NCBI GenBank assembly: GCA_902599045.1
Contig: CACKEA010000003.1
Location: 1 to 64,000, forward strand
Direction: 5' to 3'
DNA: 64,000 nucleotides
Source of the DNA: an uncultured Alphaproteobacteria bacterium
Lineage (GTDB): Bacteria > Pseudomonadota > Alphaproteobacteria > HIMB59
The notes beneath the pieces are model-generated. The model did not search any database and had not been told where the DNA came from. It saw only the letters and a program-made list of their open reading frames with translations. A program made the translations under genes and the position numbers. This document shows, piece by piece, positions 9,005 to 41,084 of this stretch (positions are counted from its first letter, which is position 1; every line of letters starts with the position of its first letter).

Positions 9005-9861
9005 TAAAGTCTTTCAAACGTGTTATTAAATTTTGTTAAGTTTTCTTCAGTGTATTTAGAATAATCAAATTCTAAATTTGAAGTAATCTCTGATACCATA
9101 CTCCACATCGTTTCTCTAAGGAGACTTGCTGCCTTCATTGCATTATATCTTATGAGAAGTTCTTTTGATGGTTTTTGATCATAATATAATTCTAAACAGT
9201 GGTTTTCTAATTCAGTATCAAAATCATTATTTGAAGCAAGGCCACCGATATCAAATAATGGATCATTAAATCCGCCATATTCCCAATCAACTACCCAAAT
9301 TTTTGAACCGTCATCTAAAAAATTTGCAGCCAAGAAATCATTGTGGCCAAATACTATATCCCTAGGAGAAGATAATTTCTCTATTATTTCTGATTTTTTA
9401 ATTAGTTCTTGAATTATTGAAACATAACTTGAATTATTTTTTTTTAAAAAGTTAGAATAATACTTAATTACGTAAAAAACCCAAAAAATTATTGACTGAC
9501 CATTTAATTGATTTGGCATTTCAAAATGAATTTTTTTAATGATGGGCATAATTTTATCAAGGTTTATCCTAACAGTTTCAGGATCAAGAGTTTTACATTG
9601 GATATAATCAAAAACCATCACACCCGGCTCAAAGTGTATCAATTTTGGGGACACCCCAATAGCATGAGCCGCTTTACTTACGTTTAATTCATTAGATCTA
9701 TAGACTAAATGCTCAGGAATATCCTCTCCCATTCTTACTACATATTTTGATGTACCATCTTTGATTAGATAATTATGATTTGTAATTCCTCCTTCTAGGG
9801 GATTTAAAGAGATATTACCTTTCCAGATAGGTAGTGTCTTAATTTTATCTACATAATTCAT
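9004..9861 (-). CDS. Choline/ethanolamine kinase-like phosphotransferase (APH fold)
   Basis: 285 residues with the protein-kinase-like APH/choline kinase fold. Seen: an N-terminal lobe with GGITNHNY (glycine-rich loop) and YVVRMGE (ATP lysine replaced in position by arginine, as in many family members), then the catalytic FGHNDFLAANFL (HNDxxxxN) and VVDWEYGG (Mg-binding aspartate, DFG equivalent). It is the first gene of a two-gene unit with the DMGDH-like gene and is divergent from BHMT, so a role in phosphorylating choline or a related methylated amine is plausible. True substrate unknown; other APH-like kinases have similar motifs. Confidence 0.75.
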   Translation of the reverse strand: MNYVDKIKTLPIWKGNISLNPLEGGITNHNYLIKDGTSKYVVRMGEDIPEHLVYRSNELNVSKAAHAIGVSPKLIHFEPGVMVFDYIQCKTLDPETVRINLDKIMPIIKKIHFEMPNQLNGQSIIFWVFYVIKYYSNFLKKNNSSYVSIIQELIKKSEIIEKLSSPRDIVFGHNDFLAANFLDDGSKIWVVDWEYGGFNDPLFDIGGLASNNDFDTELENHCLELYYDQKPSKELLIRYNAMKAASLLRETMWSMVSEITSNLEFDYSKYTEENLTKFNNTFERL

Positions 9862-27186: not shown

Positions 27187-27445
27187 TACTTTTTTTCCTT
27201 TTTATTTTGTAATACCTAAGTATTGCTATGGTGCCTAAAAAATTCAAAAGTATGTACATCAAAGAAATATCTACAAAATCAGGCCTTTCAAATGCAAAAC
27301 CATGAACACTAATGCCTATCGCTATAATAGTCCCAATGCTTGATATAGATAATATTCTGTCAAAAGGAGTTGGACCTTTGATTGCTCGAACTAAGCATAA
27401 TGCTACAGAGACCCCCAAAACAGTTAATGTTGCAAAAAAGATCAT
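27176..27445 (-). CDS. mnhF: Mrp-type antiporter subunit F
   Basis: 89 residues, three membrane helices. Seen: RAIKGPTPFDRILS (MrpF signature, GPTxxDR) and ISLMYILLNFLGTIA. Its start shares four bases (ATGA) with the mnhE stop. Normal length. Confidence 0.93.
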   Translation of the reverse strand: MIFFATLTVLGVSVALCLVRAIKGPTPFDRILSISSIGTIIAIGISVHGFAFERPDFVDISLMYILLNFLGTIAILRYYKIKRKKSNVL

Positions 27446-27936
27446 TTATCTAAATCTGTAATTACTTTGTTCATATCATCTGTCTGCAAGTCTTCAGAGA
27501 GTTTCTTACTTAATGCATGAACAAGAAATATTTTTTTATCTACTTCAATTGTTACTGTGCCAGGTGTAAGTGTTATAGCATTTGCATAGTTTGCAATACC
27601 TGTTCTATTCTTTTGAGATGCCTTAACTGTTATGAGTTGAGGAGAATATTTACCATTCCAAATTAAAGCTGTTGTTGTTACTCCAGATTTAAAAATTTGT
27701 TTAAAAAGCCAAATCCAATAAAATGGTAATCTAAGTATGATTTTTAAAGGAAGAGAGTCTTCCTCAAGTGCTTTAGCTCTGTAGGACATCCAAAAAACAA
27801 AAAGAACGCTAATAACGCCAAAGAAAAGTAAAAGAGTTTTTAAGTAACCTGATAAAATAAACCAAAATACAAAAAGTATTATGAAATAAGTTATAAACGA
27901 TAAGGTCTTAAGTGAATCTTTATTAGGTTTAGCCAC
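27442..27936 (-). CDS. mnhE: Mrp-type antiporter subunit E
   Basis: 164 residues with two to three N-terminal membrane helices and a cytosolic C-terminal domain. Seen: the conserved ANAITLTPGTVTIEV motif. Starts with GTG. It is the first gene of the antiporter block, nine bases after the formyltransferase stop, so the antiporter may be read through from the oxalate-type cassette upstream; I see no terminator or clear promoter in between. Confidence 0.9.
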   Translation of the reverse strand: MAKPNKDSLKTLSFITYFIILFVFWFILSGYLKTLLLFFGVISVLFVFWMSYRAKALEEDSLPLKIILRLPFYWIWLFKQIFKSGVTTTALIWNGKYSPQLITVKASQKNRTGIANYANAITLTPGTVTIEVDKKIFLVHALSKKLSEDLQTDDMNKVITDLDK

Positions 27937-27945
27937 TAAAAGCTA

Positions 27946-28863
27946 TTATGAGAATAAATCACCCTCTGTAAATACTGCAGTGTTCATGTCTTTTACAAAT
28001 AATTTACCTTGATCAGATTTAAACCTTGATACTTCAATAAATCCACCTTTTACAGCTATTCTAACATTCTCAGCATTAATTGATATTATTTGACCTGGGA
28101 AATGCTCGGCGCTTTGTTCATCAATAAACCTACTATCGAAGAATGTATACTCGTCTTCCATAAATTCAGCCCACGCACCGGGTTGAGGGTTGCAGCCTCT
28201 TATTAGGTTATAAATTTCATTTCCAGGCTTTTTCCAATCAATTCGTGCATCACTTTTTTTACACCAAGATTCATATGTAGCTTTAGAGTCGTCTTGGGGT
28301 ATTTTGGGTGCATTTCCTGACTCAATTAGATTTGCTGCTTCTAAGCAAGCATCGAGACCCAATGGAAATATCTTTTTAAAATAAACATCGCCCAAAGTAT
28401 CATCAGGTGCTATGTCAACTTCCTTTTGAAGTAATATCTCACCTTCATCTAATCCATCGTTAGGATAAAAGATTGAAAGACCTGTTTTAGTTGATCCGCC
28501 AATAATCGGCCAGTTAATAGAACTTGGACCTCTATGTAATGGAAGTAATGAAGGGTGAAAACATATTGAACCATGAGTAGGAATATCTCTTGCCCCTTCA
28601 GGAACGAAAATAATAACATATGCCATTACACATAAATCTGCTCCATGAGACCTTATTTGATCTAATACCTCTTGATCTTTAAAGTTTGATGGTTGGAATA
28701 CTGGGAGACTTACACTTTGGGCGTATTCCTTTACAGGGTCAACTGGCTTACCTTCTTTATCGGGCGCACAATATACTGCTACAACTTCGTGCTCTGTTTC
28801 TGTATGAAATTTTTCTAAAGCACTTTTACCAAATGCTTGTTGTCCCATTAAAATTATCTTCAT
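27946..28863 (-). CDS. Formyltransferase-fold enzyme like the 10-formyl-THF hydrolase domain of FDH
   Basis: 305 residues. N-terminal formyltransferase domain (about 1-200) with FHPSLLPLHRG and DGLDEGEILLQ; C-terminal Fmt-type barrel domain (about 205-300). Many stretches (GADL, HPSLLP-HRG--INW, ATYE, IRG--PGAW) match the N-terminal hydrolase domain of 10-formyltetrahydrofolate dehydrogenase better than methionyl-tRNA formyltransferase. The usual Asn two residues before the catalytic His is Cys101 (His103, Asp139 present). It follows frc by 26 bases with a good AAGGAGA site, so it probably acts on the formyl group from formyl-CoA or on 10-formyl-THF. A role as the housekeeping fmt is unlikely. 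Confidence 0.8.
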   Translation of the reverse strand: MKIILMGQQAFGKSALEKFHTETEHEVVAVYCAPDKEGKPVDPVKEYAQSVSLPVFQPSNFKDQEVLDQIRSHGADLCVMAYVIIFVPEGARDIPTHGSICFHPSLLPLHRGPSSINWPIIGGSTKTGLSIFYPNDGLDEGEILLQKEVDIAPDDTLGDVYFKKIFPLGLDACLEAANLIESGNAPKIPQDDSKATYESWCKKSDARIDWKKPGNEIYNLIRGCNPQPGAWAEFMEDEYTFFDSRFIDEQSAEHFPGQIISINAENVRIAVKGGFIEVSRFKSDQGKLFVKDMNTAVFTEGDLFS

Positions 28864-28889
28864 TATGTCTCCTTAAAATTGAATGTATC

Positions 28890-30137
28890 TTATACTGCTC
28901 CGGCTTCTCTTACAGCTTTAATTTCATCTTCGCTCATTTGACAAAATTCCTTCAGTATCTCATCTGTATGTTCTCCAAGAAGTGGAGATCTTTCAACTTT
29001 TGCTGGAGAGTCTGATAATTTAATAGGATTGCCAACTGTTAAATATTTTCCTCTTTCAGGATGATCAACCTCAACTATTGTATTGGTATCTCTTAGTCCT
29101 TGATCTTCAGACAACTCTTTTAGAGAGAGGATTGGGCCAACTGGTATATCAAGAGGGTTGCATATATCCATAACCTCAAATTTTGTCTTAGTCATAGTCC
29201 AAGCTTCGATGGTATTAAAGATTTCATTAAGTTTTGGCAGTCTAAGCGCAGGTGTTGAGTAACTCTCGTCTTCTTTCCATTCAGGTTTTCCAATAACATC
29301 ACATACTTTTTCCCAAACTGCAGCTTGAGTAATAAAATAAGTATAGGCATTAGGATCTGTCTCCCAGCCTTTACATTTTAGAATTCTTCCTGGTTGACCT
29401 CCACCAGAGTCATTACCTGCACGAGGCGTAGCGTCATCAAAAGGAATATTTTCTCCAAATTGAGAGTATTCTTTCAAAGGGCCTCTAGAGAGCCTTTGTT
29501 GATCACGAAGTTTTACTCTGCAAAGATTTAAAACACCGTCTTGCATAGCAGCAGATACTCTTTGACCTTTTCCTGACTTTTCTCTGTGAAACAATGCGGT
29601 AACAATACCTAATGCTAAATGTAATCCTGTTCCACTATCTCCTATTTGAGCCCCAGTAACGAGGGGGACTTCGCCAAGCATACCTGTTGTTGAAGCTGAT
29701 CCACCTGCGCATTGAGCAACATTCTCATAAACTTTACAATCTTCGTACTTACCCGGACCAAAGCCCTTAACAGACGCATAAATCATTCTTGGATTTATCT
29801 CCTGAATTTTTTCCCAAGAAAAACCCATTCTGTCCAAAGCACCTGGAGCAAAGTTTTCGACCATCACATCACATTCTTTAATTAGTTTAGTAAATATTTT
29901 TGAACCTTCAGGCTTCTTCGGATTTAGTGTAATACTTCTTTTATTAGAATTAAGCATTGTAAAGTACAAGCTGTCTGCTTCAGGAACATCTCTTAACTGA
30001 CCCCTAGTAGCGTCTCCTACTCCTGGTCTTTCTACTTTGACTACATCTGCACCAAACCAAGCTAATAATTGTGTACAAGTCGGACCAGATTGAACGTGAG
30101 TCATGTCTAATATTTTGACACCTTTTAAAGCTTCCAT
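28890..30137 (-). CDS. frc: Formyl-CoA:oxalate CoA-transferase (class III CoA-transferase)
   Basis: 415-residue family III (CaiB/BaiF) CoA-transferase. The sequence follows the Oxalobacter FRC very closely from memory: [29 protein letters not shown], catalytic aspartate in [13 protein letters not shown] (about residue 168), the glycine-rich flap GGGQPG, and LLGEHTDE at the end. It would move CoA from formyl-CoA (or succinyl-CoA) to oxalate or a similar carboxylic acid. It lies 16 bases after the ThDP enzyme gene with a GAGGAAA ribosome site, in the transporter-regulator-lyase cassette. Among class III enzymes this one is well recognised, though substrate range can vary. Confidence 0.88.
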
Positions 30138-30153
30138 GATTTCCTCCTAAGAT

Positions 30154-31830
30154 TTATTTGTACATAGTCTGGTTTTTTGTACCAGGTGCAAATTCTTCTT
30201 TATCAACCCAAATATTTACAATAGCAGGGATACCTGACTTTACAGCTTCTCTAGCTCGTTTAAGGGCTGGTTGAATTTCTTTTGCTTCTCTGACAGCTTC
30301 TCCATGACCACCAAAGATTTTTGCAAATTCATCAAAATTGACATCGCCTAAGATATTTCCAACATTACCTTTATCTTCTCCGTACTTCATAATTTGTCCA
30401 AATCTAATCTGATTTTGAGCAGAGTTATTTCCTATAACTGTTAAAACTGGTGCTTTATGACGAACAAATGCCTCAAAATCCATACCAGTCATAGAAAATG
30501 CTCCATCACCGCAGTATAAAAGAATTTCTTTTTCTGGAGCTGCTAATTTAGCAGCAAGCGCGTAAGGTACTCCAACTCCTAATGTTCCAAGAGGTCCAGG
30601 GTCCATCCAAGCACCTGGCATTCTTGGCTGTACAGCCTGAGCACTGATAGTAACAACATCTCCACCATCGCCAATATATATCGTGTCATCGTTCAAAAAC
30701 TGATTAAGCTCCCATGCCACTCTGTAAGGGCTGATTGGAGATTTATCAGTCGTAAAAGTAGGCATCAGCTTTTCTAATGCGGCCTCTTCACCTGATCGAA
30801 GTTCACCAAACCAATCTGATCTGTCTTTCTTTGTTCCTGCCTCTGAAATAGCTTTTAAAGTTGTTCCAATATGACCGACTAAGCCAAGAGAGATGTCTCT
30901 ATTTTTTCCAACAGTTCTATAATCCATATCAATTTGAATAACTGTTGCATTTGGGTTTAATCTTTTTCCATAACCCATTCTGAAATCGAATGGTGTTCCA
31001 ACAATTATGATACAATCTGATTTGGTAAATGCATTTCTTCTGGTTCTATGAAAATGATGTGGGTCTCCTGGTGCCATTGAACCTCTGGCAGCACCATTTA
31101 AATAAGTAGGTATGTTCATATTTTTAACAAATTCAATCGCTTCTTCAGTTGACTGGCAAGTCCAAACTTGTTGACCCAAAAGTACGCAAGGTCTCTCAGC
31201 TTTTGAAATTATATCAGCTGCTTTTTGAACATCTATTGGATCTGCTAATGTTTTTGATGAAGCACTATATTTGCCTGCCTGTGGTAATACAGCTTTACTC
31301 ATTGGAATAGATGAGTCAAGGATGTCTCTTGGAATTTCTAAGAAAGATGGGCCAAACGATCCATTTCTTGTTTCCCTGAAAGCCATTGAGACCATGTCTG
31401 CGCATCTCTCAGTCGACATTACTGTAGCAGCGAATTTTGTAATGGGTTGCATCATGTCTACGTGAGGCAAATCTTGTAAAGATCCCATTTTATGTTGAGT
31501 AAGAGAGCTCTGACCACCAATTAAAAGCATCGGTATCTCAGCTCTAAAAGCGTTCGCGACCCCAGTTAATGCATGAGTAGTGCCAGGACCGGCAGTCACA
31601 ACAGCACAACCTGGTTTACCAGTCATTCGTGCATATCCGTCAGCAGCATGAGAGGCAACTTCTTCGTGACGAACATCAATAATTTTAATTCCTTCGTTTA
31701 AACATCCATTATAAATGTCAATAATGTGCCCTCCACATAAAGTATAAATTACTTCAACTCCCTCCGCTTTAAGGGCTTTAGCAACCAGCTCCCCGCCAGT
31801 TATCATTTGTTCGTTTGTTCCTGTAGACAT
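30154..31830 (-). CDS. ThDP-dependent lyase/decarboxylase, oxalyl-CoA decarboxylase / 2-hydroxyacyl-CoA lyase-like
   Basis: 558-residue acetolactate-synthase-fold enzyme: PYR domain (about 10-175; catalytic Glu56 in VRHEEVA), central domain (about 200-330) and PP domain (about 370-540; ThDP/Mg motif GDGAFSM...GNNS). By position next to frc it should cleave a CoA-thioester to formyl-CoA. However the Tyr-Glu pair that marks oxalyl-CoA decarboxylase (about position 120) is missing; GSLQDLP here looks more like 2-hydroxyacyl-CoA lyase. A palindrome just upstream may be its operator. Alternatives: oxalyl-CoA decarboxylase of a divergent type, or an acetolactate-synthase-like enzyme. Confidence 0.75.
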   Translation of the reverse strand: MSTGTNEQMITGGELVAKALKAEGVEVIYTLCGGHIIDIYNGCLNEGIKIIDVRHEEVASHAADGYARMTGKPGCAVVTAGPGTTHALTGVANAFRAEIPMLLIGGQSSLTQHKMGSLQDLPHVDMMQPITKFAATVMSTERCADMVSMAFRETRNGSFGPSFLEIPRDILDSSIPMSKAVLPQAGKYSASSKTLADPIDVQKAADIISKAERPCVLLGQQVWTCQSTEEAIEFVKNMNIPTYLNGAARGSMAPGDPHHFHRTRRNAFTKSDCIIIVGTPFDFRMGYGKRLNPNATVIQIDMDYRTVGKNRDISLGLVGHIGTTLKAISEAGTKKDRSDWFGELRSGEEAALEKLMPTFTTDKSPISPYRVAWELNQFLNDDTIYIGDGGDVVTISAQAVQPRMPGAWMDPGPLGTLGVGVPYALAAKLAAPEKEILLYCGDGAFSMTGMDFEAFVRHKAPVLTVIGNNSAQNQIRFGQIMKYGEDKGNVGNILGDVNFDEFAKIFGGHGEAVREAKEIQPALKRAREAVKSGIPAIVNIWVDKEEFAPGTKNQTMYK

Positions 31831-31847
31831 ATTTAACCTCTCTCTGG

Positions 31848-31864
31848 TGGTATAATGTATACCA
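31848..31864. promoter_or_regulatory. Palindromic operator candidate for the neighbouring GntR regulator
   Basis: Perfect inverted repeat TGGTATA-ATG-TATACCA (7-base arms, 3-base spacer) in the 63-base gap between the GntR gene and the ThDP lyase gene, 17 bases before the lyase start. TGGT...ACCA half-sites are typical of FadR/FCD-class GntR regulators. A near-identical repeat occurs at 35871-35887. It also holds a TATA-type hexamer, so it may overlap a promoter that would be blocked by the bound regulator. Confidence 0.7.
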
Positions 31865-31893
31865 GATTATAAGGTGTTGCAAAGAATTTTGCC

Positions 31894-32553
31894 TTATGAA
31901 TTAATGCTTTCTTGAATCTTATCCACTAATGTAAGTGCATGATTTTTAAGAAGTTTTTCTGCTTTTGATGCCTGCCCTGCGACAAGAGATCTAACAATAT
32001 CATTGTGTTCGTCAATAGATTTAACGGCCCTATTTGACTCGATTATAAACTTTTTCCTGAGGTATTGTAGATGGATTAATTGAGACTCTAAAATTTCTCC
32101 CATTAGTTTAACTTTAGTCAATTTCATAATTTGATTATGGAATTTGATGTTATCATTTGAGTAATTGTCTAGTTCGGATAAAACGTTCTCCTTAGAGTAA
32201 TGACAGAATTTGTTTAAACTCTCTATTTCATCCTTTTTTGAATTTTTAATAATTAAGTGTGCTGCATAACCCTCTAGTCCTGCCCAAACAGTTACAATAT
32301 CAACCAAATCTTTTTTTGATTTTCTATGGACAAAAACGCCTCTTCTTGGAACGGTTTTTACAATACCTTCTTGCTCTAATTTTGCAACTGCCTCTCTTAT
32401 AGGTGTTCGACTCACTCCTAGCTTCTCAGACAATTGTCTTTCATCTAAATGAAAATCACTTTCTTTTAAGTATATATTCAAAGATAAAATATATTTTTTT
32501 AAAGACTCATATACTTTACCTTTAAGGTTTACAGCTCCTATTTTTTGAATCAT
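31894..32553 (-). CDS. GntR-family (FCD) transcriptional regulator
   Basis: 219 residues. N-terminal winged helix-turn-helix (about 10-80) with the GntR signature ERQLSEKLGVSRTPIREA and RRGVFV wing. The C-terminal all-helical FCD effector domain (about 90-215) would bind a carboxylic acid; it includes HNQIMKLTK and an EHNDIV histidine, usual metal/ligand residues. Start codon directly follows the tctA stop. It is inside the operon it presumably controls, and two palindromes (31848-31864, 35871-35887) are likely targets. Confidence 0.9.
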   Translation of the reverse strand: MIQKIGAVNLKGKVYESLKKYILSLNIYLKESDFHLDERQLSEKLGVSRTPIREAVAKLEQEGIVKTVPRRGVFVHRKSKKDLVDIVTVWAGLEGYAAHLIIKNSKKDEIESLNKFCHYSKENVLSELDNYSNDNIKFHNQIMKLTKVKLMGEILESQLIHLQYLRKKFIIESNRAVKSIDEHNDIVRSLVAGQASKAEKLLKNHALTLVDKIQESINS

Positions 32554-34077
32554 TTAAGCTGTTTGTTTTTTTTTAAAGAGTCTTCTATAAAGAGGACCGA
32601 ATGCAGGCATTATCAAAAGGACAATTGCGATATACATTATCACAGCTGCAATAGGTTTTTCCGAAACATCAAAAAATATCCCCATACTACCGTCAGATAA
32701 AATCAAAGATTGTCTTAAAGCTTTTTCAGCCAAAGGACCAAGAACAATTGACAAAACTGCAGGTGCAACTGGATAATCTAATTTTCTTAAGATATATCCT
32801 GCAAATCCAAATAGTAACATCAACCATACATCGTGCAAACTTTGAGTGGGCGCATAACCTCCTGTTACGCAAAGAACAAAAATAACTGGAGCTAAGATGG
32901 CAAAAGGTATTCTTAAGACCATTAAAAAGGCAGGTATTAATGCAATATTTAGAACAAGGGTAAAGAAATTTGCTATGTAAAGACTTCCGATCAAACCCCA
33001 TACAAACTCGGGTTCTTGTGTAAACAAAAGAGGACCAGGTGTAAGTCCCCATAGGATCATACCTCCGAGTAGAATAGCCGTAGTAGGAGATCCAGGTATT
33101 CCAAGTGTTAACATAGGAAGCATACTTCCTGTACTTGCTGAATTGTTTGCACACTCTGGTGCTACAACACCTGCTGGAACACCCTCTCCAAATTCTTTGG
33201 AGTTTTTTGATAATTGTTTTGTAATACCGTATGACATGAGCGAAGCAGGTGTAGCACCTGCTGCAGGAAGAATTCCAACAAAGAAGCCTAAAAAAGAGCC
33301 TATGTTCATTGCCATAATAGTTTTCTTAAGTGCACCAAATGCTCTTCCAACCTCTTTCATGTTGACAGATAATTTTGACATTTGAACTTTGCCTTTTGTC
33401 TCCTCAAGAGTCCATAGCATTTCACCTATTCCGTATATACCTATAGCTAAAACTAGGAAATTAATTCCATGAAGGAAACCAGGTATGTTAAAGAAAATTA
33501 ATCTTGGTTTTCCAGTAATTAAATCCAAACCAATAGTTGATAGTGCTAGTCCGATTAAAATTGAAAAAATAGTTTTAGGTACATCGTCTCCACCTAAACC
33601 TACAAAAGTTGCAAAGGCCATAACCATTAACGCAAATGTTTCTGGAGCATTAAACCTAAGTGCAACTTCAGCAAGAGGTGGGGCAAATAAAGTAAATAGA
33701 ATAACAGAGACAGTACCACCAACAAATGAACCAACTGCAGCAGCAGTTAATGCAGTCATAGCCTCTCCTTTGACCGCAAGTGGTCTGCCATCAAAAACTG
33801 TGGCAACTGCAGTAGAGGCTCCAGGAATACCTAGCATGACAGAGCTAATGGCTCCTCCATACATTGCACCGTAGTATACAGCAGCAAGAAAAATTATTGC
33901 TGCAGTGGGTGGAATAATAAAAGTAATAGGAATAAGAATTGCTACACCATTAACTGAACCAAGACCGGGCATTGCTCCAACAAACAAACCTATTAAACAT
34001 CCAAATATTAATAGTGCCAAATTAAACCACTGAAGTGATGTAAAAATGCCGTCTAAAAGAAATCCAACTGTTTCCAT
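32554..34077 (-). CDS. tctA: Tripartite tricarboxylate transporter, large permease TctA
   Basis: 507 residues, about 12 membrane helices. Seen: GCLIGLFVGAMPGLGSVNG near the front (TctA signature), GIPGASTAVATVFDGRP, and the repeat-like GIPGSPTTAILLGGM in the second half; the paired GxPGSxT motifs are typical. It forms the channel for Na+- or proton-driven uptake of a carboxylate delivered by TctC. Precedes the GntR gene with no gap. Confidence 0.93.
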   Translation of the reverse strand: METVGFLLDGIFTSLQWFNLALLIFGCLIGLFVGAMPGLGSVNGVAILIPITFIIPPTAAIIFLAAVYYGAMYGGAISSVMLGIPGASTAVATVFDGRPLAVKGEAMTALTAAAVGSFVGGTVSVILFTLFAPPLAEVALRFNAPETFALMVMAFATFVGLGGDDVPKTIFSILIGLALSTIGLDLITGKPRLIFFNIPGFLHGINFLVLAIGIYGIGEMLWTLEETKGKVQMSKLSVNMKEVGRAFGALKKTIMAMNIGSFLGFFVGILPAAGATPASLMSYGITKQLSKNSKEFGEGVPAGVVAPECANNSASTGSMLPMLTLGIPGSPTTAILLGGMILWGLTPGPLLFTQEPEFVWGLIGSLYIANFFTLVLNIALIPAFLMVLRIPFAILAPVIFVLCVTGGYAPTQSLHDVWLMLLFGFAGYILRKLDYPVAPAVLSIVLGPLAEKALRQSLILSDGSMGIFFDVSEKPIAAVIMYIAIVLLIMPAFGPLYRRLFKKKQTA

Positions 34078-34103
34078 ATGATTTAATTATTCACTCTAAA
34101 CAA

Positions 34104-34718
34104 TTACTTAATAAATCTAGTTGTTAAAAAAACTAGAGCTGTTGGTAGTAAAACTGTTAGAATAATAAAAATCATTTTCACAGCAAATGAAAATCCACCA
34201 TACATAAAGTCGTATACTGGATAAAATAATGGCTCAGATACACCTTGAGGTAAAGGTATTTTCAACATCCACTCAAAAAATAAAAAAGTTAATATAGGGG
34301 TTGTAATTGCGAATATAGTAATAAATGCAATACTTTTTTCACTAAAATATCTTAGGTAAAATGCCAAAAAGAAAATAAGTGAAAAGTAAATTCCAAGATA
34401 GCCAATAGCTAGAACTAAGACAACTAATGAGATTATAGTCACAGCTATAAATTTAAAAGCTACTGCATCAATAAAAGGAGTGTCATCTTTAGATTGTGGT
34501 GATCTTTTTAAAACAAATTTTATTATGGTAAGAATAGTGCATATGAGCATGCCAAGAGATAGGTAAAAAGGGAGAAATCCAGCGCCCATATTTTCTTCTG
34601 CATTCCATGTAATCCTATTCTCTGAACTTTTAATCATTAGAGCGATTGAGCATAACGCTAAAATAACAGCAACAGCAATTTCTGCTCTTTTGACAGTTAT
34701 TTTGTTTGTAATGCTCAT
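34104..34718 (-). CDS. tctB: Tripartite tricarboxylate transporter, small subunit TctB
   Basis: 204 residues with four membrane helices (about 15-30, 45-65, 88-135 as a pair, 170-200), poorly conserved as usual for TctB. The motif GAGFLPFYLSL in the first loop is the typical TctB G-x-G-x-x-P feature. Position between tctC and tctA, same direction, makes the call secure. No specific substrate information. Confidence 0.85.
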   Translation of the reverse strand: MSITNKITVKRAEIAVAVILALCSIALMIKSSENRITWNAEENMGAGFLPFYLSLGMLICTILTIIKFVLKRSPQSKDDTPFIDAVAFKFIAVTIISLVVLVLAIGYLGIYFSLIFFLAFYLRYFSEKSIAFITIFAITTPILTFLFFEWMLKIPLPQGVSEPLFYPVYDFMYGGFSFAVKMIFIILTVLLPTALVFLTTRFIK

Positions 34719-34737
34719 ATCGCTCGTAACTTAATTA

Positions 34738-35715
34738 TTAGTTAAAGTTTTTAATGATCTCGCCGTGCTTCTCATATTCAATTGCTAAGAAGTCTTTAAG
34801 ACCAAAACCTTCTAACCAACTCATTAACTTTCCGTCGTCAATGTTGAAAGTTTGGAACTCGTCATCATGATAAACAGTGTGAAGAAGACCTGTGTAGTAC
34901 TTCTCTACTTCTGCATCAATACCAGCTGGAGCCATAAATGCTCTCATCATGTAGTATTCAAGATCAGGATAACCTAATTCATATGAAGATGGTACTTCAG
35001 GGAATGCAGGATTTCTTTCAGGAGTCATCATGACTAATGCTTTTGAGTCACCTGACTGGTAGAAACCCATTTGCTCTGAAGGGTTGTTTAATGTGAAGTC
35101 AGACTCGCCACCAACTAGTCCCTTAGCAACAGCACCACCGCCGCTGTATGGAACATACTTAGCGTCAAATCCAAATTGACCTCTCATCATACCAAGAAGT
35201 AATTCGTCCTCAGACATACTTCCTGTACCACCCATTACAAGACCGTTACCTTTTGCTAGGTCAATGAAATCATCAAATGTTTCTACACCAGCAGTGTTCT
35301 TACCTTCTGTTGCGATCCATACTAGGAAAGTATCAGTGATAAGTCTTGCTAAAGGTGTAAAGTCATTAAAGAAATCAATGCCTAATTCTGGCTGGTTTAC
35401 GGGTGTAGTAAGAACGTTGTTAAGAGTAATGATAAGTGTGTGCTCATCACCAGCTTTTTTCTTAACATAAGTCATAGCTTCACCACCTGATCCACCTGAT
35501 TTGTTGATCGGAATCACAGGCTTAGATGCGTAATCGTTCTTTTCGATAACACCTTGAACTAATCTAGCGATTTCGTCAGCTCCACCACCTTGACCAGCTG
35601 GTATGATAAGCTCAACAGGCTTCTTCGGACTAAAAGGCTTCGCAGAAGACACTGAGCTAACAGCGACAAGTGAAAGTGAAACAACTACTAATGCTAATTT
35701 CTTAATTATTGACAT
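34738..35715 (-). CDS. tctC: Tripartite tricarboxylate transporter, periplasmic binding protein TctC
   Basis: 325 residues. N-terminal signal peptide with basic start and hydrophobic core, predicted cleavage after SSVSSA (about residue 25). The mature protein starts KPFSPKKPVELIIPAGQGGGADEIAR, the Bug/TctC pattern with the binding loop GGGAD. It captures the carboxylate in the periplasm for TctA/TctB. An AGGAGGAAAC ribosome site precedes the ATG, the strongest in this block, which suits an abundant binding protein. First gene of the block; operator-like sites lie 100-170 bases upstream. Confidence 0.92.
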   Translation of the reverse strand: MSIIKKLALVVVSLSLVAVSSVSSAKPFSPKKPVELIIPAGQGGGADEIARLVQGVIEKNDYASKPVIPINKSGGSGGEAMTYVKKKAGDEHTLIITLNNVLTTPVNQPELGIDFFNDFTPLARLITDTFLVWIATEGKNTAGVETFDDFIDLAKGNGLVMGGTGSMSEDELLLGMMRGQFGFDAKYVPYSGGGAVAKGLVGGESDFTLNNPSEQMGFYQSGDSKALVMMTPERNPAFPEVPSSYELGYPDLEYYMMRAFMAPAGIDAEVEKYYTGLLHTVYHDDEFQTFNIDDGKLMSWLEGFGLKDFLAIEYEKHGEIIKNFN

Positions 35716-35818
35716 ATTGTTTCCTCCTATAGGTTAGGGCGTAGAATAGACTATTTATAGTGGAATGAAAAATAATAATTTTCAGTGTTTCATAATTTGA
35801 AATTATTATCAAATATTG

Positions 35819-35832
35819 TTGGTATACATAAT
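35819..35832. promoter_or_regulatory. Half-site resembling the GntR operator
   Basis: TGGTATACAT here equals the first ten bases of the reverse-strand reading of the 31848-31864 palindrome, but the second arm is not conserved. It lies about 100 bases before tctC and 40 bases from the full palindrome. It may be an auxiliary site; chance cannot be excluded in AT-rich sequence. Confidence 0.35.
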
Positions 35833-35870
35833 CTTTTATTAACCCTTATAACAGAGATTGTTTTTAAGAA

Positions 35871-35887
35871 TTGTATAATGTATACAA
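35871..35887. promoter_or_regulatory. Second palindromic operator candidate between tctC and qor, overlapping a TATAAT box
   Basis: Perfect inverted repeat TTGTATA-ATG-TATACAA, differing from the palindrome before the lyase gene by one base per arm. On the plus strand it contains TATAAT (35874-35879), a good -10 box for qor: with transcription starting near 35886, the AGAGGA ribosome site and TTG start of qor follow correctly. Binding of the GntR protein here could control both divergent units, tctC onward and qor-sucC-sucD. Confidence 0.65.
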
Positions 35888-35907
35888 AATGCCAGAGGAA
35901 AATAATT

Positions 35908-36882
35908 TTGAAATTTATCAATAATAATGAGGGTAATCTCTTTATAGATGAAAAAGTATTGAATGATCCTCTTGATAGCCAAATACAAATTGAAATTGAT
36001 TACGCTGGTATCAACAGAGCCGATATTCTTCAAAGAAAAGGTCACTACCCTCCACCAAAAGGTGAAAGTGAAATAATCGGTCTCGAATGCTCTGGTAAAG
36101 TTTCAAAATTAGGTAGGTTAGTAAAAAAATTTACCTTAGGAGACCAAGTATGTGCAATTCTAGCAGGTGGTGGTTATGCAGAATTTGTGAATGTTGATGA
36201 AAAACAAGTTATGCTCTTACCAAGCAATTTAAATTCCCTTGAGGCGGGAGGTTTGCCTGAAACGACACTCACTGTTTATGAAAATATTTTTAATGTATCG
36301 AACTTCCAAAAAGATGAAAGTATTCTAATACATGGGGGAAGCAGTGGTATAGGCACTACGGCTATTTCTATTCTTAAAAACTATACAAAAAATCTTTACG
36401 TAACTGCAGGCACAAATCAAAAGTGTAAGAGCTGTATAGAATTAGGAGCTACAGAAGCTATCAATTATAAAGATTTAGATTTTGAGGAGTATTTTAATGA
36501 GAAAAATTTAAAAGTTGATGTTATATTAGATATGGTCGGAGGAGAGTATCTAAAGAAAAATTTAAAAATTTTAAATTTTAAAGGAAGACTCACATACATA
36601 GCTGCCTTAGGTGGAATTAAAGGTGAAGCTAATCTCCTGCATATAATGAACAAACAACTAAAAATTTCTGGTTCAACATTGAGATCTAGAACTCCTTTAG
36701 AAAAAGGAATTATTGTCGATCAAGTGCAAAAAGAAATATGGCCCTTGATAGAGGATGGCAAATATAAGCCTACAATTTTTGAAACTTTTAAAATGCATGA
36801 GGTAAATAAAGCACATGAAGTTATGGAAAAGTCCGATCACATCGGAAAAATAGTATTAGATATAAAAGGAGAACAGGCATGA
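35908..36882 (+). CDS. qor: NADPH:quinone reductase / zinc-free medium-chain dehydrogenase
   Basis: 324 residues from a TTG chosen because AGAGGA lies eight bases upstream and the protein then begins like the family; in-frame GTG (35785) and ATG (35878) further upstream fall in the operator/promoter region. Seen: GroES-like half with [19 protein letters not shown], and Rossmann half with [13 protein letters not shown] (NADPH loop, G-x-S-G-I-G). No zinc-ligand cysteines, as for quinone oxidoreductases of the PIG3/QOR type. It shares four bases (ATGA) with sucC, so they are one operon. Substrate unknown. Confidence 0.85.
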
Positions 36883-38076: not shown

Positions 38077-38949
38077 ATGTCAGTATTAATAGATAAAAAT
38101 ACTAAAGTTATTTGCCAAGGATTTACAGGCTCGCAAGGAACTTTCCACTCAGAACAAGCAATTAAATACGGAACCCTGATGGTCGGTGGAGTGACCCCAA
38201 AGAAAGGCGGTCAAGAACACTTAGGTCTTCCAGTATTCAACAGTGTCATGGAGGCTAAAGAAAGCACTGAAGCAAATGCAACTGTGATATATGTTCCACC
38301 TCCCTTTGCTGCAGGTGCTATTATTGAAGCTATTGATGCTGATATGGAGTTAATTGTTTGTATAACTGAGGGTGTCCCAGTACTCGATATGATGCAGGTA
38401 AAAAGAAAATTAGAAAAATCGAAATCGCGTTTAATTGGTCCAAACTGTCCAGGAATAATTACACCAGATGAATGTAAAATAGGTATTATGCCTGGCCATA
38501 TTCATCAAAAAGGAAAAATAGGCATTGTTAGTAGATCTGGGACTCTTACTTATGAAGCAGTCGCTCAAACATCTGCAGTAGGTCTAGGACAATCAACTTG
38601 TATTGGTATTGGTGGAGATCCAATTAACGGTACAAACTTTATAGACTGTCTTGATCTATTTTTAAAAGACCCTGAAACTGAGGCTATTATTATGATAGGA
38701 GAAATTGGTGGTGCTGCTGAAGAAGAGGCCGCAGAGTTTATAAAAAAATCTGAAATTAAAAAACCAGTTGCATCTTTTATAGCTGGTGCAAGCGCTCCTG
38801 CTGGAAAAAGAATGGGTCATGCTGGCGCCATTATATCCGGAGGAAAAGGTACTGCTGAGTCAAAGTTTAGTGCTTTAGAGGAGGCAGGAGTTCATATCTC
38901 AAAATCACCAGCAAAATTAGGCGAAACAATTAAAGAGGCACTAAGTTAA
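38077..38949 (+). CDS. sucD: Succinyl-CoA synthetase, alpha subunit
   Basis: 290 residues. CoA-binding Rossmann domain ([16 protein letters not shown] near the front), [11 protein letters not shown] in the middle, and the phosphorylated histidine in [11 protein letters not shown] (about residue 248). An AAAGGAGA site precedes the ATG. It follows sucC by ten bases and forms the heterotetramer with it. The stop overlaps the convergent panE-like gene by four bases. Confidence 0.96.
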
Positions 38950-39923
38950 TATAATTTAGCCTCTTTTGCTCTAAGTTTTGTTAAAGCGAGCACTGTATCA
39001 ATTGTTGGTGTTGGAATATTTGTAATTCTTCCAAGTTCTTGAACTGAAGAAATTAGAGCATCAATTTCCATTGGTCTATCACGTTCTAAATCTTGAAGCA
39101 TTGATGTTTTATGCTCACCCACTGCTTTAGCAGCATCTATTCTTCTTTCCACGTCAAAAGGTTTGTCAATTCCTAAACTTTGAGAAATGGCATGTGCTTC
39201 ATTCATCATATTTTTTACAACATCCCTAACTTCATGGTTGCTACAAATTTTTACAAGAGTAGATGTAGTAAGTGCACTGATAGGGTTAAGAGACAAGTTA
39301 CCAAAAAGCTTTAGCCATATGTCTCCCTTAATATTTGGTCTAACTGGTGCTTGAAAGCCAGCTTTTTCTAATGTCTCAGAAAGATTTTTAATTCTATCTG
39401 TTTCCTCGCCGTTAATTTCTCCTAATTGAAACTTGTCACCCTCTAGGTGTTGAATTACACCTGGTTTAATAACCTCTGAGGCTGGATTGACAATACAACC
39501 AATAATTTTTTGAGGACCTATTCGAGACCATTGACTTCCATCTGGATCAACTGAGGTAACTTTTTTATTTTTGAAGTCAGGATTACTATGATTATAAAAG
39601 TACCACCACGGAATACCATTTACTCCCCAGACAAATGACGTATCTTCATTCATAAGTACTTCAAAAGCATCAAGACAACCTGGCACAGAATGTGCTTTTA
39701 GAGTCACAAAAATATAATCTTGCTTTCCTGCTTTCTCTGCTGTGTCAACGCACTTAGGATAAACCACAAGTTCTTTACCATCTTTTCTTAATCTTAATCC
39801 ATCTTGTCTAATAGCTTCATAGTGAGGGCCCCTTGCAATCAAAGTGACATCAGCACCAATTTCAGTTAATTTAGCTCCAAGGTAACCACCTATTGCACCA
39901 GCACCGTAAATACAAATTTTCAT
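38946..39923 (-). CDS. 2-Dehydropantoate 2-reductase family (PanE/ApbA) protein
   Basis: 325 residues. N-terminal NADPH motif [13 protein letters not shown] and LIARG; catalytic lysine in [18 protein letters not shown] and the C-terminal [12 protein letters not shown], all typical of ketopantoate reductases. The family also contains other 2-ketoacid reductases, so pantothenate synthesis is likely but not certain. It starts one base after the aminotransferase stop in the same direction, suggesting shared control; a role in 2-ketoacid/glyoxylate-type chemistry with that enzyme is possible. Confidence 0.8.
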
Positions 39924-41084
39924 TTAGACTTTTAAATGTTTGATTGCTGCGGCTACTCCACTTCCAAGTTCAAACTTTATTCCTACATCATACATTGCTA
40001 ATTCGGCTGTTGAAATCGCTCCAAGCATCATAGTGCTATTTAAATCACCAAGGTGACCTATTCTAAATAACTTTCCAGCAACTTTATTCAATCCACCGCC
40101 AAAGGAAGTGTTATATTTATTGTAAGCTGTTTTAACAACGTCTGTGGAGTCAATTCCCTCTGGAACCATGATAGCTGTAACAGTATTAGAGTATAAAGAT
40201 GGATCTTTTGCACAAAGTTTAAGTCCCCAAGCATTAGAGGCTTTTTGAACTGCTTCAGCTAAAAACTTATGACGTGAATATATGTTATCAAGTCCCTCTT
40301 CCATCATCATATCAAGAGCCTCACGTAGACCTCTTAATAATGGCATTGGGTTAGTATAAGGCCAGTAACCTGTTTCATTAATTTTTAACATATCTTGATA
40401 ATCGTAATAGGCTCTGGGTAAATTTGCAGTTTTAGCAATTTCAAGTGCCTTCTGACTAACGCACGAAATAGCAAGACCTGCGGGTAACATAAAACCTTTT
40501 TGAGATCCAGAGACTGCAACATCAACGCCCCATGCATCCATTTCAAATTTTATTGAACCTATAGAGCTTACCCCATCAACAAATAATAAAGCTGGATGGT
40601 TAAGATTGTTTAAAAGTTCTCTAGTGGCTTTAACATCATTCGTTACTCCAGTAGAGGTTTCGTTTTGGGTAACAAGTACAGCTTTTATCTTATGTTCTTT
40701 ATCAGCTGATAAAATCTTTTCAAATTCTTCATGAGGTGTTCCTGAACCCCATTCACAATCTACTTCTTCAACATCAATGTGAAGTTTTTTACACATTTCA
40801 ATCCAAAGGTGAGAAAAATGTCCAAATCTTCCAGATAAAACTTTATCTCCTTTGCTTAATAAATTGGTAAGTGCTGCTTCCCATCCACTGGAGCCTGTAC
40901 CTGGAAATATAATAGGTTGACCTGAGGTTGTTTCAAAAACTTTTTTTAAATCGTTTATTAGTGGATGCCAAAATTTATCCATCCCTGGTGCACGGTGGTC
41001 CTCATTTGAAATATCCATTGCCTGTCTTACTCTATCAGGCATATTGGTTGGCCCTGGAACGAAAAGTGAAATTTTACCTGGCAT
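39924..41084 (-). CDS. Class V aminotransferase (serine/alanine/aspartate-glyoxylate type)
   Basis: 386-residue PLP enzyme. Seen: FVPGPTNMPDRVRQAM, GSSGWEAAL, NETSTGV, VDGVSSIGS and the PLP lysine in VSGSQKGFMLPAGLA; the C-terminus FRIGHLGDLN is typical of serine-glyoxylate aminotransferase and also of the aspartate-glyoxylate enzyme of the beta-hydroxyaspartate cycle. Either would transfer an amino group to glyoxylate to give glycine. No other hydroxyaspartate-cycle genes are seen here, so serine-glyoxylate is the simpler reading. First gene of a two-gene unit. Confidence 0.85.
   Translation of the reverse strand: MPGKISLFVPGPTNMPDRVRQAMDISNEDHRAPGMDKFWHPLINDLKKVFETTSGQPIIFPGTGSSGWEAALTNLLSKGDKVLSGRFGHFSHLWIEMCKKLHIDVEEVDCEWGSGTPHEEFEKILSADKEHKIKAVLVTQNETSTGVTNDVKATRELLNNLNHPALLFVDGVSSIGSIKFEMDAWGVDVAVSGSQKGFMLPAGLAISCVSQKALEIAKTANLPRAYYDYQDMLKINETGYWPYTNPMPLLRGLREALDMMMEEGLDNIYSRHKFLAEAVQKASNAWGLKLCAKDPSLYSNTVTAIMVPEGIDSTDVVKTAYNKYNTSFGGGLNKVAGKLFRIGHLGDLNSTMMLGAISTAELAMYDVGIKFELGSGVAAAIKHLKV

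What the first reader, a model, noticed from the sequence alone, without database searches (positions are those of the whole stretch)
27946..35715. Candidate carboxylate-to-formyl-unit system: TctCBA, GntR, ThDP lyase, Frc and FDH-like formyltransferase
Seven same-strand genes with little space combine uptake (Tct), a regulator, CoA activation (Frc), C-C cleavage giving formyl-CoA (ThDP lyase), and a formyltransferase of FDH-hydrolase type. Oxalate degradation by Frc plus oxalyl-CoA decarboxylase is known, but I know of no described unit that adds this formyltransferase, which could move the formyl group to folate or release formate. It would feed the C1 pool that also serves GlyA, DMGDH and BHMT nearby. 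Substrate may be oxalate or a 2-hydroxy acid.
Basis: partly seen in the sequence, partly recalled or inferred. Interest (0 to 1): 0.78.

Follow-up and report, generated by a model that had tools for sequence, protein, structure and literature searches.

The report
Oxalate operon with folate-type formyltransferase
A small marine bacterium carries an operon that looks built to take up and break down oxalate, and it holds an extra enzyme that probably passes the resulting one-carbon formyl group between coenzyme A and folate, a step for which we found no description.

Summary
The seven genes are real, intact and on one strand: tctC-tctB-tctA-gntR-ThDP-frc-FT, gaps 0-63 bp, in a 1.37 Mb HIMB59-type alphaproteobacterium. 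Frc passes the oxalate Frc model. FT is closest to the hydrolase domain of 10-formyl-THF dehydrogenase and keeps its catalytic His, Ser, Asp and Tyr, but has Cys where formyltransferases have Asn. Of 385 sampled alphaproteobacterial genomes 27 have FT and Frc, 6 FT only, 7 Frc only, 345 neither. Fhs follows FT in 47 of 51 Frc-linked loci with room. The ThDP enzyme fails the OXC and AcHACL tests, yet it and OXC replace each other beside Frc, never together in 91 loci. A palindrome marks two promoters in 14 of 14 genus loci and occurs in 23 of 54 other loci. Best reading: an oxalate operon in which FT moves formyl between formyl-CoA and tetrahydrofolate. No activity was tested and the direction is open. 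GlyA, DMGDH-like and BHMT-like genes lie 17-19 kb away and are not part of it.

The parts
34738..35715 (-). tctC, periplasmic substrate-binding protein of a tripartite tricarboxylate transporter (325 aa)
   Evidence: PF03401 82.2 bits; present in 14 of 14 genus loci looked at
34104..34718 (-). tctB, small membrane subunit (204 aa)
   Evidence: PF07331 69.3 bits
32554..34077 (-). tctA, large membrane subunit (507 aa)
   Evidence: PF01970 481.8 bits; 66% identical to the tctA of the La6 oxalate cluster
31894..32553 (-). GntR/FCD-family regulator (219 aa), probable regulator of the operon
   Evidence: PF00392 + PF07729; below the cut-off of all 21 NCBIfam models matched; paired with a conserved palindrome
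30154..31830 (-). ThDP-dependent enzyme (558 aa), probable non-canonical oxalyl-CoA decarboxylase
   Evidence: TPP_enzyme N, M and C domains; below the cut-off of each of the 25 NCBIfam models shown of 51 matched, OXC included; takes the place of OXC beside Frc
28890..30137 (-). frc, formyl-CoA:oxalate CoA-transferase (415 aa)
   Evidence: TIGR03253 693.8 bits over cut-off 504.2; best solved relative E. coli YfdW, E 2.9e-161
27946..28863 (-). FT, stand-alone FDH-hydrolase-type formyltransferase (305 aa), C101-F-H103-P-S105 motif, D139, Y197
   Evidence: model with mean pLDDT 90.2
31848..31863 (-). Operator-like palindrome GGTATACATTATACCA in the gntR/ThDP gap
   Evidence: 1 mismatch to the pattern searched; 0.42 matches expected in the window at up to 2 mismatches; same place in 14 of 14 genus loci
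35871..35886 (-). Operator-like palindrome TGTATACATTATACAA upstream of tctC
   Evidence: 0 mismatches; same place in 14 of 14 genus loci
38946..39923 (-). PanE-like reductase, candidate oxalyl-CoA/glyoxylate oxidoreductase; associated by homology only, not in the operon
   Evidence: 40-53% identical to PanE-like proteins in the loci of Phyllobacterium (two), Caballeronia, Cupriavidus metallidurans and Nonomuraea; in L110, L111 and L123 the palindrome lies 66-158 bp before the panE-like gene, but not in this window
39924..41084 (-). BhcA-like aminotransferase, candidate glyoxylate-to-glycine step; associated by homology only
   Evidence: NF045640 574.2 bits, below its cut-off of 650; 59% identical to the aminotransferase in the La6 oxalate cluster

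Best explanation
This is an operon for oxalate uptake and breakdown, controlled by its GntR regulator. TctCBA brings in oxalate (inferred). Frc moves CoA from formyl-CoA to oxalate, giving oxalyl-CoA and formate (family function). The ThDP enzyme decarboxylates oxalyl-CoA to formyl-CoA and CO2 as a non-orthologous stand-in for OXC (inferred from operon position). FT exchanges the formyl group between formyl-CoA and tetrahydrofolate (inferred), using His103, Ser105 and Asp139 as the FDH hydrolase domain does, with Cys101 in place of the usual Asn. Running towards folate, it puts oxalate carbon into the one-carbon pool with no ATP at that step, though oxalate must then be activated by some other CoA donor. 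Running backwards, with Fhs, it would make formyl-CoA from formate and ATP and so prime the Frc cycle. I favour net flow towards folate about 60:40. Formate left over can go to the genome's own formate dehydrogenase or Fhs, both encoded elsewhere in the genome.
For: Frc passes the oxalate-specific model. FT co-occurs with Frc: 27 both, 6 FT only, 7 Frc only, 345 neither of 385 genomes, Fisher p 2e-29, and 2e-26 without the own genus; the genomes are related, so p overstates the case. FT sits directly behind Frc in 39 of 40 non-genus loci of the FT-selected scan, some on partial frc at a contig end; the one miss is itself cut off at its contig end. Fhs follows in 47 of 51 Frc-linked loci with room. 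ThDP and OXC exclude each other beside Frc: 46 and 35 of 91 loci, both together 0, neither 10. FDH residues H106, S108, D142 and Y200 are kept in 81 of 81 FT rows, and I104 is C in 52 and Q in 29. Precedents: the FDH hydrolase domain hands formyl to a 4'-phosphopantetheine thiol (PMC8748788, passages; PMC4388273, section 3.2 and part of the Discussion). In HypX the homologous domain is proposed to hand it to CoA itself (PMC6802093, passages). Formate dehydrogenase alpha is in the genome (TIGR01591 750.5 over 666.25), as is Fhs.
Against: No activity was measured. HypX's formyl transfer to CoA is itself only proposed in its paper. Six of 33 FT genomes lack Frc, and of the 27 with both only 16 have the genes within 200 bp (by eye); one more shows a partial frc at its contig end. 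FT relatives with Q at this site also sit away from Frc, in 15 of 29 rows, so the subfamily is not bound to oxalate. One C-type FT (L095) sits among genes that do not look oxalate-related. The FDH domain can hydrolyse 10-formyl-THF, so hydrolysis is not excluded. The ThDP enzyme lacks the OXC pair Tyr120/Glu121. The model of the ThDP enzyme is poor at the active site.
Confidence: 0.58

Rival explanations
1. FT is a 10-formyl-THF hydrolase (a PurU-like or FDH-Nt-like deformylase). It releases formate and THF and does not touch CoA; its place in the operon only balances the folate pool while formate is being handled.
For: The FDH domain it most resembles is named a hydrolase, and mutants reviewed in PMC4388273 show that Asn at this site is bad for hydrolysis; FT has no Asn. 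The own genome has no PurU above cut-off.
Against: Fhs, which makes 10-formyl-THF at the cost of ATP, follows FT in 47 of 51 Frc-linked loci with room; a hydrolase beside it would be a futile cycle. The FDH domain needs an added thiol to hydrolyse in vitro (PMC4388273), which points to thiol transfer as the native act.
Confidence: 0.15
2. The pathway is the same but FT works only backwards. Fhs and FT together make formyl-CoA from formate, ATP and CoA, to start and top up the Frc cycle, the job that acetyl-CoA:oxalate CoA-transferase (YfdE) is proposed to do in E. coli. This is the minor direction of the best explanation taken as the whole function.
For: Fhs is present in 30 of 33 FT genomes against 146 of 352 without FT, and sits next to FT. 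10-formyl-THF to thiol is the direction described for FDH and proposed for HypX. A need for priming is argued for YfdE (PMC3720670, passages).
Against: From recall, formyl-CoA is the more energetic donor, which favours the opposite direction. Two genomes have FT and Frc but no Fhs match (G450, G464). They weigh little: G450 is 78% complete with its contig ending 267 bp past FT, and in G464 the FT is not beside Frc.
Confidence: 0.27
3. The ThDP enzyme cleaves a short 2-hydroxyacyl-CoA (AcHACL-like) rather than decarboxylating oxalyl-CoA, so that the operon degrades a 2-hydroxy acid to an aldehyde or ketone and formyl-CoA.
For: It is closer to AcHACL (32% identity) than to OXC (25%), and keeps AcHACL's Leu-Gln where OXC has Tyr-Glu. 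The HACL model scores 349.7 against 256.9 and 245 for the two OXC models, all below cut-off. Human HACL2, also a lyase, has Ile at the Glu493 position too (PMC13327070 Table 1).
Against: AcHACL's proton-donor Glu493 is Ile475 here, invariant in the two alignments of 10 and 16 rows. AcHACL E493 variants lose about 11-12-fold (A, S), 43-fold (Q) or 540-fold (D) in kcat (PMC13327070 table passage); no Ile variant was seen there. The enzyme replaces OXC in the same gene order beside an oxalate-type Frc and sits with OxlT in two Phyllobacterium records.
Confidence: 0.12
4. FT formylates an amine (an amino acid, amino sugar or tRNA) with 10-formyl-THF, and its linkage to Frc is through formate supply only.
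For: It shares its fold with Fmt and ArnA, some Fmt chains having the higher TM-score. The C-type relative L095 lies beside DUF4910/DUF2172 and Gfo/Idh-like genes (by eye).
Against: The Asn that amine formyltransferases use is absent in all 81 aligned FT rows. The genome has a separate Fmt-like protein with that Asn.
Confidence: 0.08

Closest known systems
Frc-Oxc oxalate module (Oxalobacter, E. coli YfdW/YfdU, Cupriavidus necator frc-oxc with apbA2)
   Same: Same Frc family, over the curated cut-off. Same logic of oxalyl-CoA to formyl-CoA. In C. necator deletion of frc-oxc abolishes growth on oxalate and deletion of the PanE2 homologue apbA2 slows it (PMC7486775, passages); the window has a PanE-like gene 3 kb beyond the operon.
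   Different: The decarboxylase is a different ThDP subfamily (25% identity to OXC). TctCBA instead of OxlT. An FDH-type formyltransferase is added.
N-terminal hydrolase domain of 10-formyl-THF dehydrogenase (ALDH1L1/FDH)
   Same: Best solved relative by sequence and by Foldseek E-value, 36-37% identity in the structural alignments. His, Ser, Asp and Tyr of the active site kept.
   Different: Stand-alone, with no carrier or aldehyde dehydrogenase domain. Ile104 is Cys. The presumed thiol partner is free CoA.
HypX N-terminal domain
   Same: Same family, and proposed to move formyl from 10-formyl-THF to CoA (PMC6802093, passages).
   Different: Far in sequence (16-18% identity). HypX goes on to make CO; no such domain here.
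[quoted passage not shown]
   Same: Nearest solved relative of the ThDP enzyme; AcHACL yields formyl-CoA, and so, by inference, does this enzyme.
   Different: 32% identity, no Glu493. The AcHACL gene sits beside a 2-HIBA-CoA ligase (PMC7176365, abstract); this one sits beside Frc.

Membership tests
Formyl-CoA:oxalate CoA-transferase (Frc) | Score over the curated cut-off of TIGR03253 | tested here: met
   693.8 bits against 504.2
Formyl-CoA:oxalate CoA-transferase (Frc) | Catalytic activity with formyl-CoA and oxalate | not testable with these tools
   needs an assay
Oxalyl-CoA decarboxylase (OXC) | Score over the curated cut-offs (PRK09259 557, TIGR03254 739.4) | tested here: not met
   256.9 and 245 bits; the canonical OXC of La6 scores 949.7 and 937
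Oxalyl-CoA decarboxylase (OXC) | Active-site Tyr120/Glu121 | tested here: not met
   Leu118/Gln119 here, Tyr/Glu in three canonical OXCs of related operons. Tyr120 and Glu121 are treated as key residues in PMC10192776 (passages)
Oxalyl-CoA decarboxylase (OXC) | Position in the operon beside Frc | tested here: met
   46 of 91 Frc loci have this enzyme, 35 have OXC, 0 both, 10 neither. The plasmid and scan loci in that set were chosen by hits of this enzyme or of FT; the class-sample loci alone give 11, 18, 0 and 2 of 31
Actinobacterial 2-hydroxyacyl-CoA lyase | Score over the curated cut-off of NF058623 | tested here: not met
   349.7 against 600
Actinobacterial 2-hydroxyacyl-CoA lyase | Proton-donor Glu493 | tested here: not met
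   Ile475 (position fixed by the variant chains printed)
FDH (ALDH1L1) hydrolase-domain group | Closest to FDH Nt, with His106, Ser108, Asp142 and Tyr200 | tested here: met
FDH (ALDH1L1) | Fused carrier and aldehyde dehydrogenase domains | tested here: not met
   305 aa, two Pfam domains only
Methionyl-tRNA formyltransferase (Fmt) | Catalytic Asn two residues before the His; score over the cut-off of TIGR00460 | tested here: not met
   Cys101; 157.5 bits against 201.5
HypX | C-terminal domain, homologous to enoyl-CoA hydratase/isomerase, that makes CO | tested here: not met
   no such Pfam domain in FT
Formyl-CoA:THF formyltransferase (proposed) | Formyl transfer between CoA and THF | not testable with these tools
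   inferred from context and precedent only

The most novel reading that the evidence does not exclude
FT is a new enzyme, a formyl-CoA:tetrahydrofolate formyltransferase, in which a cysteine replaces the family's catalytic asparagine and may briefly hold the formyl group as a thioester. Paired with Fhs it forms a folate-borne, ATP-linked bridge between formate and formyl-CoA that can either feed oxalate carbon into one-carbon metabolism or start the Frc cycle. The same operons hold a second, non-orthologous family of oxalyl-CoA decarboxylases.
Probability: 0.42. Interest if true: 0.76.

Novelty: new variant of a known kind. Interest (0 to 1): 0.62.

Why it matters
The HypX paper of 2019 states that formyl-CoA was so far reported only as a substrate of Frc (PMC6802093, passage). 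A conserved enzyme that links it to folate would open a direct route from oxalate into one-carbon metabolism, and would give synthetic C1 pathways a natural bridge. The ThDP subfamily would also explain Frc loci, such as those opened here from Streptomyces fungicidicus, Phyllobacterium and Cupriavidus metallidurans, whose partner gene is not a canonical OXC. Surveys of oxalotrophy that search for OXC alone would miss such loci, and the small-genome HIMB59 group of marine bacteria with them.

Tried and rejected
Serine cycle in the own genome: left as unproven. HpcH/Mcl-family hits in the genus are mostly in open frames of about 257-283 aa; longer frames of 316-321 aa occur in 5 of 51 genomes, not in the own one.

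SucCD beside the operon as an oxalate-CoA ligase: rejected for this genome. It is the only ATP-grasp_2 match found in the genome and passes the succinate-CoA ligase models. In other bacteria a divergent SucCD-like pair does share the palindrome, but the two pairs scanned from scan loci score around the succinate-CoA ligase cut-offs, so the substrate is open.

The antiporter genes behind FT: rejected as part of the unit. They are missing next to FT in the three deepest genus loci, L051-L053.

ThDP residue at AcHACL Glu493: I first took it to be Gln474 and noted so.

Literature: ten searches in the held library. One search (formyl-CoA, tetrahydrofolate, formyltransferase) listed 3 papers: HypX and two on synthetic C1 or CO2 use (listing only). 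with oxalyl-CoA decarboxylase added found 0. One search (HIMB59, oxalate) found 0. Most subscription journals are not held, so a description may exist outside. Two genomic surveys of oxalotrophy (PMC10192776; PMC12927642) do not hold the word tetrahydrofolate or thiamine in the text searched.

ThDP structure: mean pLDDT 70.7 with active-site stretches under 50, so no fold search was run on it.

Palindrome scan: a first, one-strand exact pattern hit 5 of 54 non-genus loci; the both-strand scan with up to 1 mismatch hit 23 of 54, none in five simple base shuffles.


Full report
What is there. The window comes from a genome of 1,372,887 bases in 16 contigs. Near relatives of its FT protein are titled HIMB59, Pelagibacteraceae or uncultured Alphaproteobacteria, so I call it a HIMB59-type alphaproteobacterium (inference). 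Seven intact genes lie on the - strand from 35715 down to 27946: tctC, tctB, tctA, gntR, a ThDP enzyme, frc and FT, with gaps of 19, 26, 0, 63, 16 and 26 bp. Domain and family searches confirm each.

Frc. The CoA-transferase scores 693.8 bits on TIGR03253 (cut-off 504.2) and matches E. coli YfdW over nearly its whole length at E 2.9e-161. Its oxalate role rests on this family.

The ThDP enzyme. It stays under the cut-off of each of the 25 NCBIfam models shown (of 51 matched), including both OXC models and the actinobacterial hydroxyacyl-CoA lyase model. Eight plasmid records hold orthologues of 62-65% identity (Phyllobacterium 2, Streptomyces 2, Cupriavidus metallidurans 2, Caballeronia 1, Nonomuraea 1); the next listed hit is at 34%. 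I opened seven of the eight, and in all seven frc lies directly behind the gene. The two Phyllobacterium records also annotate an oxalate/formate antiporter nearby, and Streptomyces fungicidicus an OFA-family transporter; the other four records carry no usable annotation. The enzyme is 32% identical to AcHACL and 25% to the La6 OXC. It has Leu118-Gln119 like AcHACL instead of OXC's Tyr-Glu, but Ile475 instead of AcHACL's Glu493. So it is a separate subfamily. The evidence that it does the work of OXC is positional. In 91 Frc loci (8 plasmid, 14 same-genus, 38 scan and 31 class-sample loci) the partner is OXC in 35, this enzyme in 46, both in 0 and neither in 10; of those 10, seven have under 1.5 kb of room and three (L124, L133, L177) have more. 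Plasmid and scan loci were chosen through hits of this enzyme or of FT; the class sample alone gives 18, 11, 0 and 2 of 31. In the class sample of 385 genomes it occurs in 15, of which 14 have Frc. In these genome searches only the best 3-4 candidates per genome were scored for the two larger families.

The formyltransferase. FT matches FDH hydrolase domains best by sequence, and its model (mean pLDDT 90.2) matches them best by Foldseek E-value. By TM-score some Fmt chains are closer (3tqq 0.91 against 4qpd 0.84). In an alignment of 81 FT rows, the FDH residues H106, S108, D142 and Y200 are kept in all 81; the Asn/Ile position is Cys in 52 and Gln in 29 and never Asn. The genome's own Fmt-like protein has Asn there. 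In the tree of 83 rows the Cys type forms one branch of 52 rows (SH-aLRT 97, no bootstrap), of which 49 are next to Frc, 2 next to Fhs and 1 next to neither. Bias: most Cys-type rows come from a scan whose DNA patterns included the CFHPSLLPL peptide, and only the best 80 of 274 were kept. In the class sample of 33 FT genomes only four are Cys-type, three of them the own genus.

Linkage. In the order, 42 of 52 same-genus genomes have the FT orthologue and none of the other 110 does, where only Fmt-level matches appear (counted by eye from the listing, many genomes incomplete). In the class sample FT (E up to 1e-60) is in 33 of 385, Frc (E up to 1e-140) in 34, both in 27. Of the 27, 16 have the two within 200 bp (by eye) and G337 shows a partial frc at its contig end; in 10 they are apart. 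Results against the link: six FT genomes lack Frc (G231, G439, G446, G458, G516, G523), seven Frc genomes lack FT, and 15 Gln-type rows sit away from Frc, some beside a pterin-4a-carbinolamine dehydratase and a putative 2OG-Fe(II) oxygenase. In the scan, 39 of 40 non-genus loci have FT next to Frc, some on partial frc at a contig end, and the last is cut 3 bp from FT. Among the 40 HIMB59-type loci of the scan, 38 show Frc before FT; L080 is cut by its contig end and L095 is a true exception.

Fhs. Formate-THF ligase follows FT in 47 of 51 Frc-linked non-genus loci with room (not in L128, L129, L162, L166; no room in L168, L169), and is in 30 of 33 FT genomes against 146 of 352 others. In the HIMB59 genus it is not in the cluster: 41 of 51 genomes have it, 9 of 9 of those at least 90% complete and at most 5% contaminated, in the own genome at C3:213064-214731. 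This speaks against FT as a plain hydrolase, which would waste what Fhs makes.

Regulation. The pattern TGTATACAWTATACMA was searched with up to 2 mismatches: 3 matches in the window against 0.42 expected, two of them overlapping, so two places, at 31848-31863 before the ThDP gene and 35871-35886 upstream of tctC. The pattern came from an alignment of regions upstream of tctC in the genus, so the upstream site is expected; the site before the ThDP gene was not in that alignment. Both places are kept in 14 of 14 genus loci. Outside the genus, 23 of 54 loci hold such a palindrome on either strand at up to 1 mismatch, against none in five simple base shuffles; in 20 of the 23 a site lies within 500 bp of gntR, tctC, the ThDP or OXC gene or a SucC-like gene, and in L110, L111 and L123 one lies 66-158 bp before a panE-like gene. 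The other 31 loci, among them 11 of the 13 Gln-type class loci tested and the La6 plasmid, have none. This draws the window's unit as two transcripts, tctCBA-gntR and ThDP-frc-FT (inference).

Wider pathway. A plasmid of Paracoccaceae strain La 6 carries oxc-frc-FT-fhs with tct genes, ketopantoate reductase, glyA, an aminotransferase, hprA, ppc and sucCD. The window has a PanE-like gene and a BhcA-like aminotransferase 3-4 kb beyond the operon, relatives of which lie in oxalate loci elsewhere. In C. necator the PanE2 homologue ApbA2 near frc-oxc affects growth on oxalate (PMC7486775, passages). So oxalyl-CoA could also be reduced to glyoxylate and glycine here; in the window neither gene is preceded by the palindrome within the two mismatches searched. 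Formate dehydrogenase alpha is present in the genome; PurU above cut-off is not.

Mechanism and direction. FDH's domain passes formyl to a 4'-phosphopantetheine thiol, and in vitro needs a small thiol to hydrolyse (PMC8748788 passages; PMC4388273 section 3.2 and part of the Discussion). HypX's homologous domain is proposed to pass it to CoA, though its authors say direct proof is lacking (PMC6802093, passages). CoA carries the same thiol arm. With formyl-CoA made two genes away, formyl exchange between CoA and THF is the simplest use. That formyl-CoA is the better donor, favouring flow to folate, is from recall. Adjacent Fhs and the argued need to prime the Frc cycle (PMC3720670, passages) keep the reverse alive. 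Nothing here decides the direction.

Verdict. A new variant of the oxalate module, with a probable new enzyme activity and a probable second decarboxylase family. Confidence is moderate because all function is inferred from sequence, place and precedent.

Noticed in passing
L095:5419-6336: A Cys-type FT paralogue in the genome AG-447-A16 sits beside DUF4910/DUF2172 and Gfo/Idh-like genes, not oxalate genes, so the enzyme may have been recruited for another formylation.
   Followed up: partly
L145-L147 and L157: Gln-type FT in one family (f105) is neighboured by a pterin-4a-carbinolamine dehydratase-like gene in all four loci (Pfam run on L145 only, the rest by eye) and, in three of the four, by a putative 2OG-Fe(II) oxygenase: a different, repeated context for FDH-type stand-alone formyltransferases.
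   Followed up: partly
L099:215-2328: A divergent SucCD-like pair shares the palindrome with the oxalate operon in Kiloniellaceae and relatives; it could be an oxalate-CoA ligase, but scores like succinate-CoA ligase.
   Followed up: partly
L110:3827, L111:5151, L123:9322: The operator-like palindrome lies directly before panE-like genes in three loci, which would place an oxalyl-CoA/glyoxylate reductase in the same regulon there.
   Followed up: partly
window 35785-36882: The listed GTG start of the quinone oxidoreductase ORF is probably too early, since the conserved operator at 35871-35886 lies inside it.
   Followed up: no
window 27442-27936 and below: A multisubunit cation/H+ antiporter cluster follows FT by 9 bp in the window, but not in the deepest genus loci L051-L053.
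   Followed up: partly
window 9004-9861: A protein of the pre-guanitoxin kinase family model NF041256 at 143 bits, far below its cut-off of 357, next to the DMGDH-like gene; more likely a related small-molecule kinase.
   Followed up: no
L036: A 25 kb stretch of a Paracoccaceae plasmid joins oxalate degradation with serine-cycle-type genes (ppc, sucCD, glyA, aminotransferase, hprA).
   Followed up: partly
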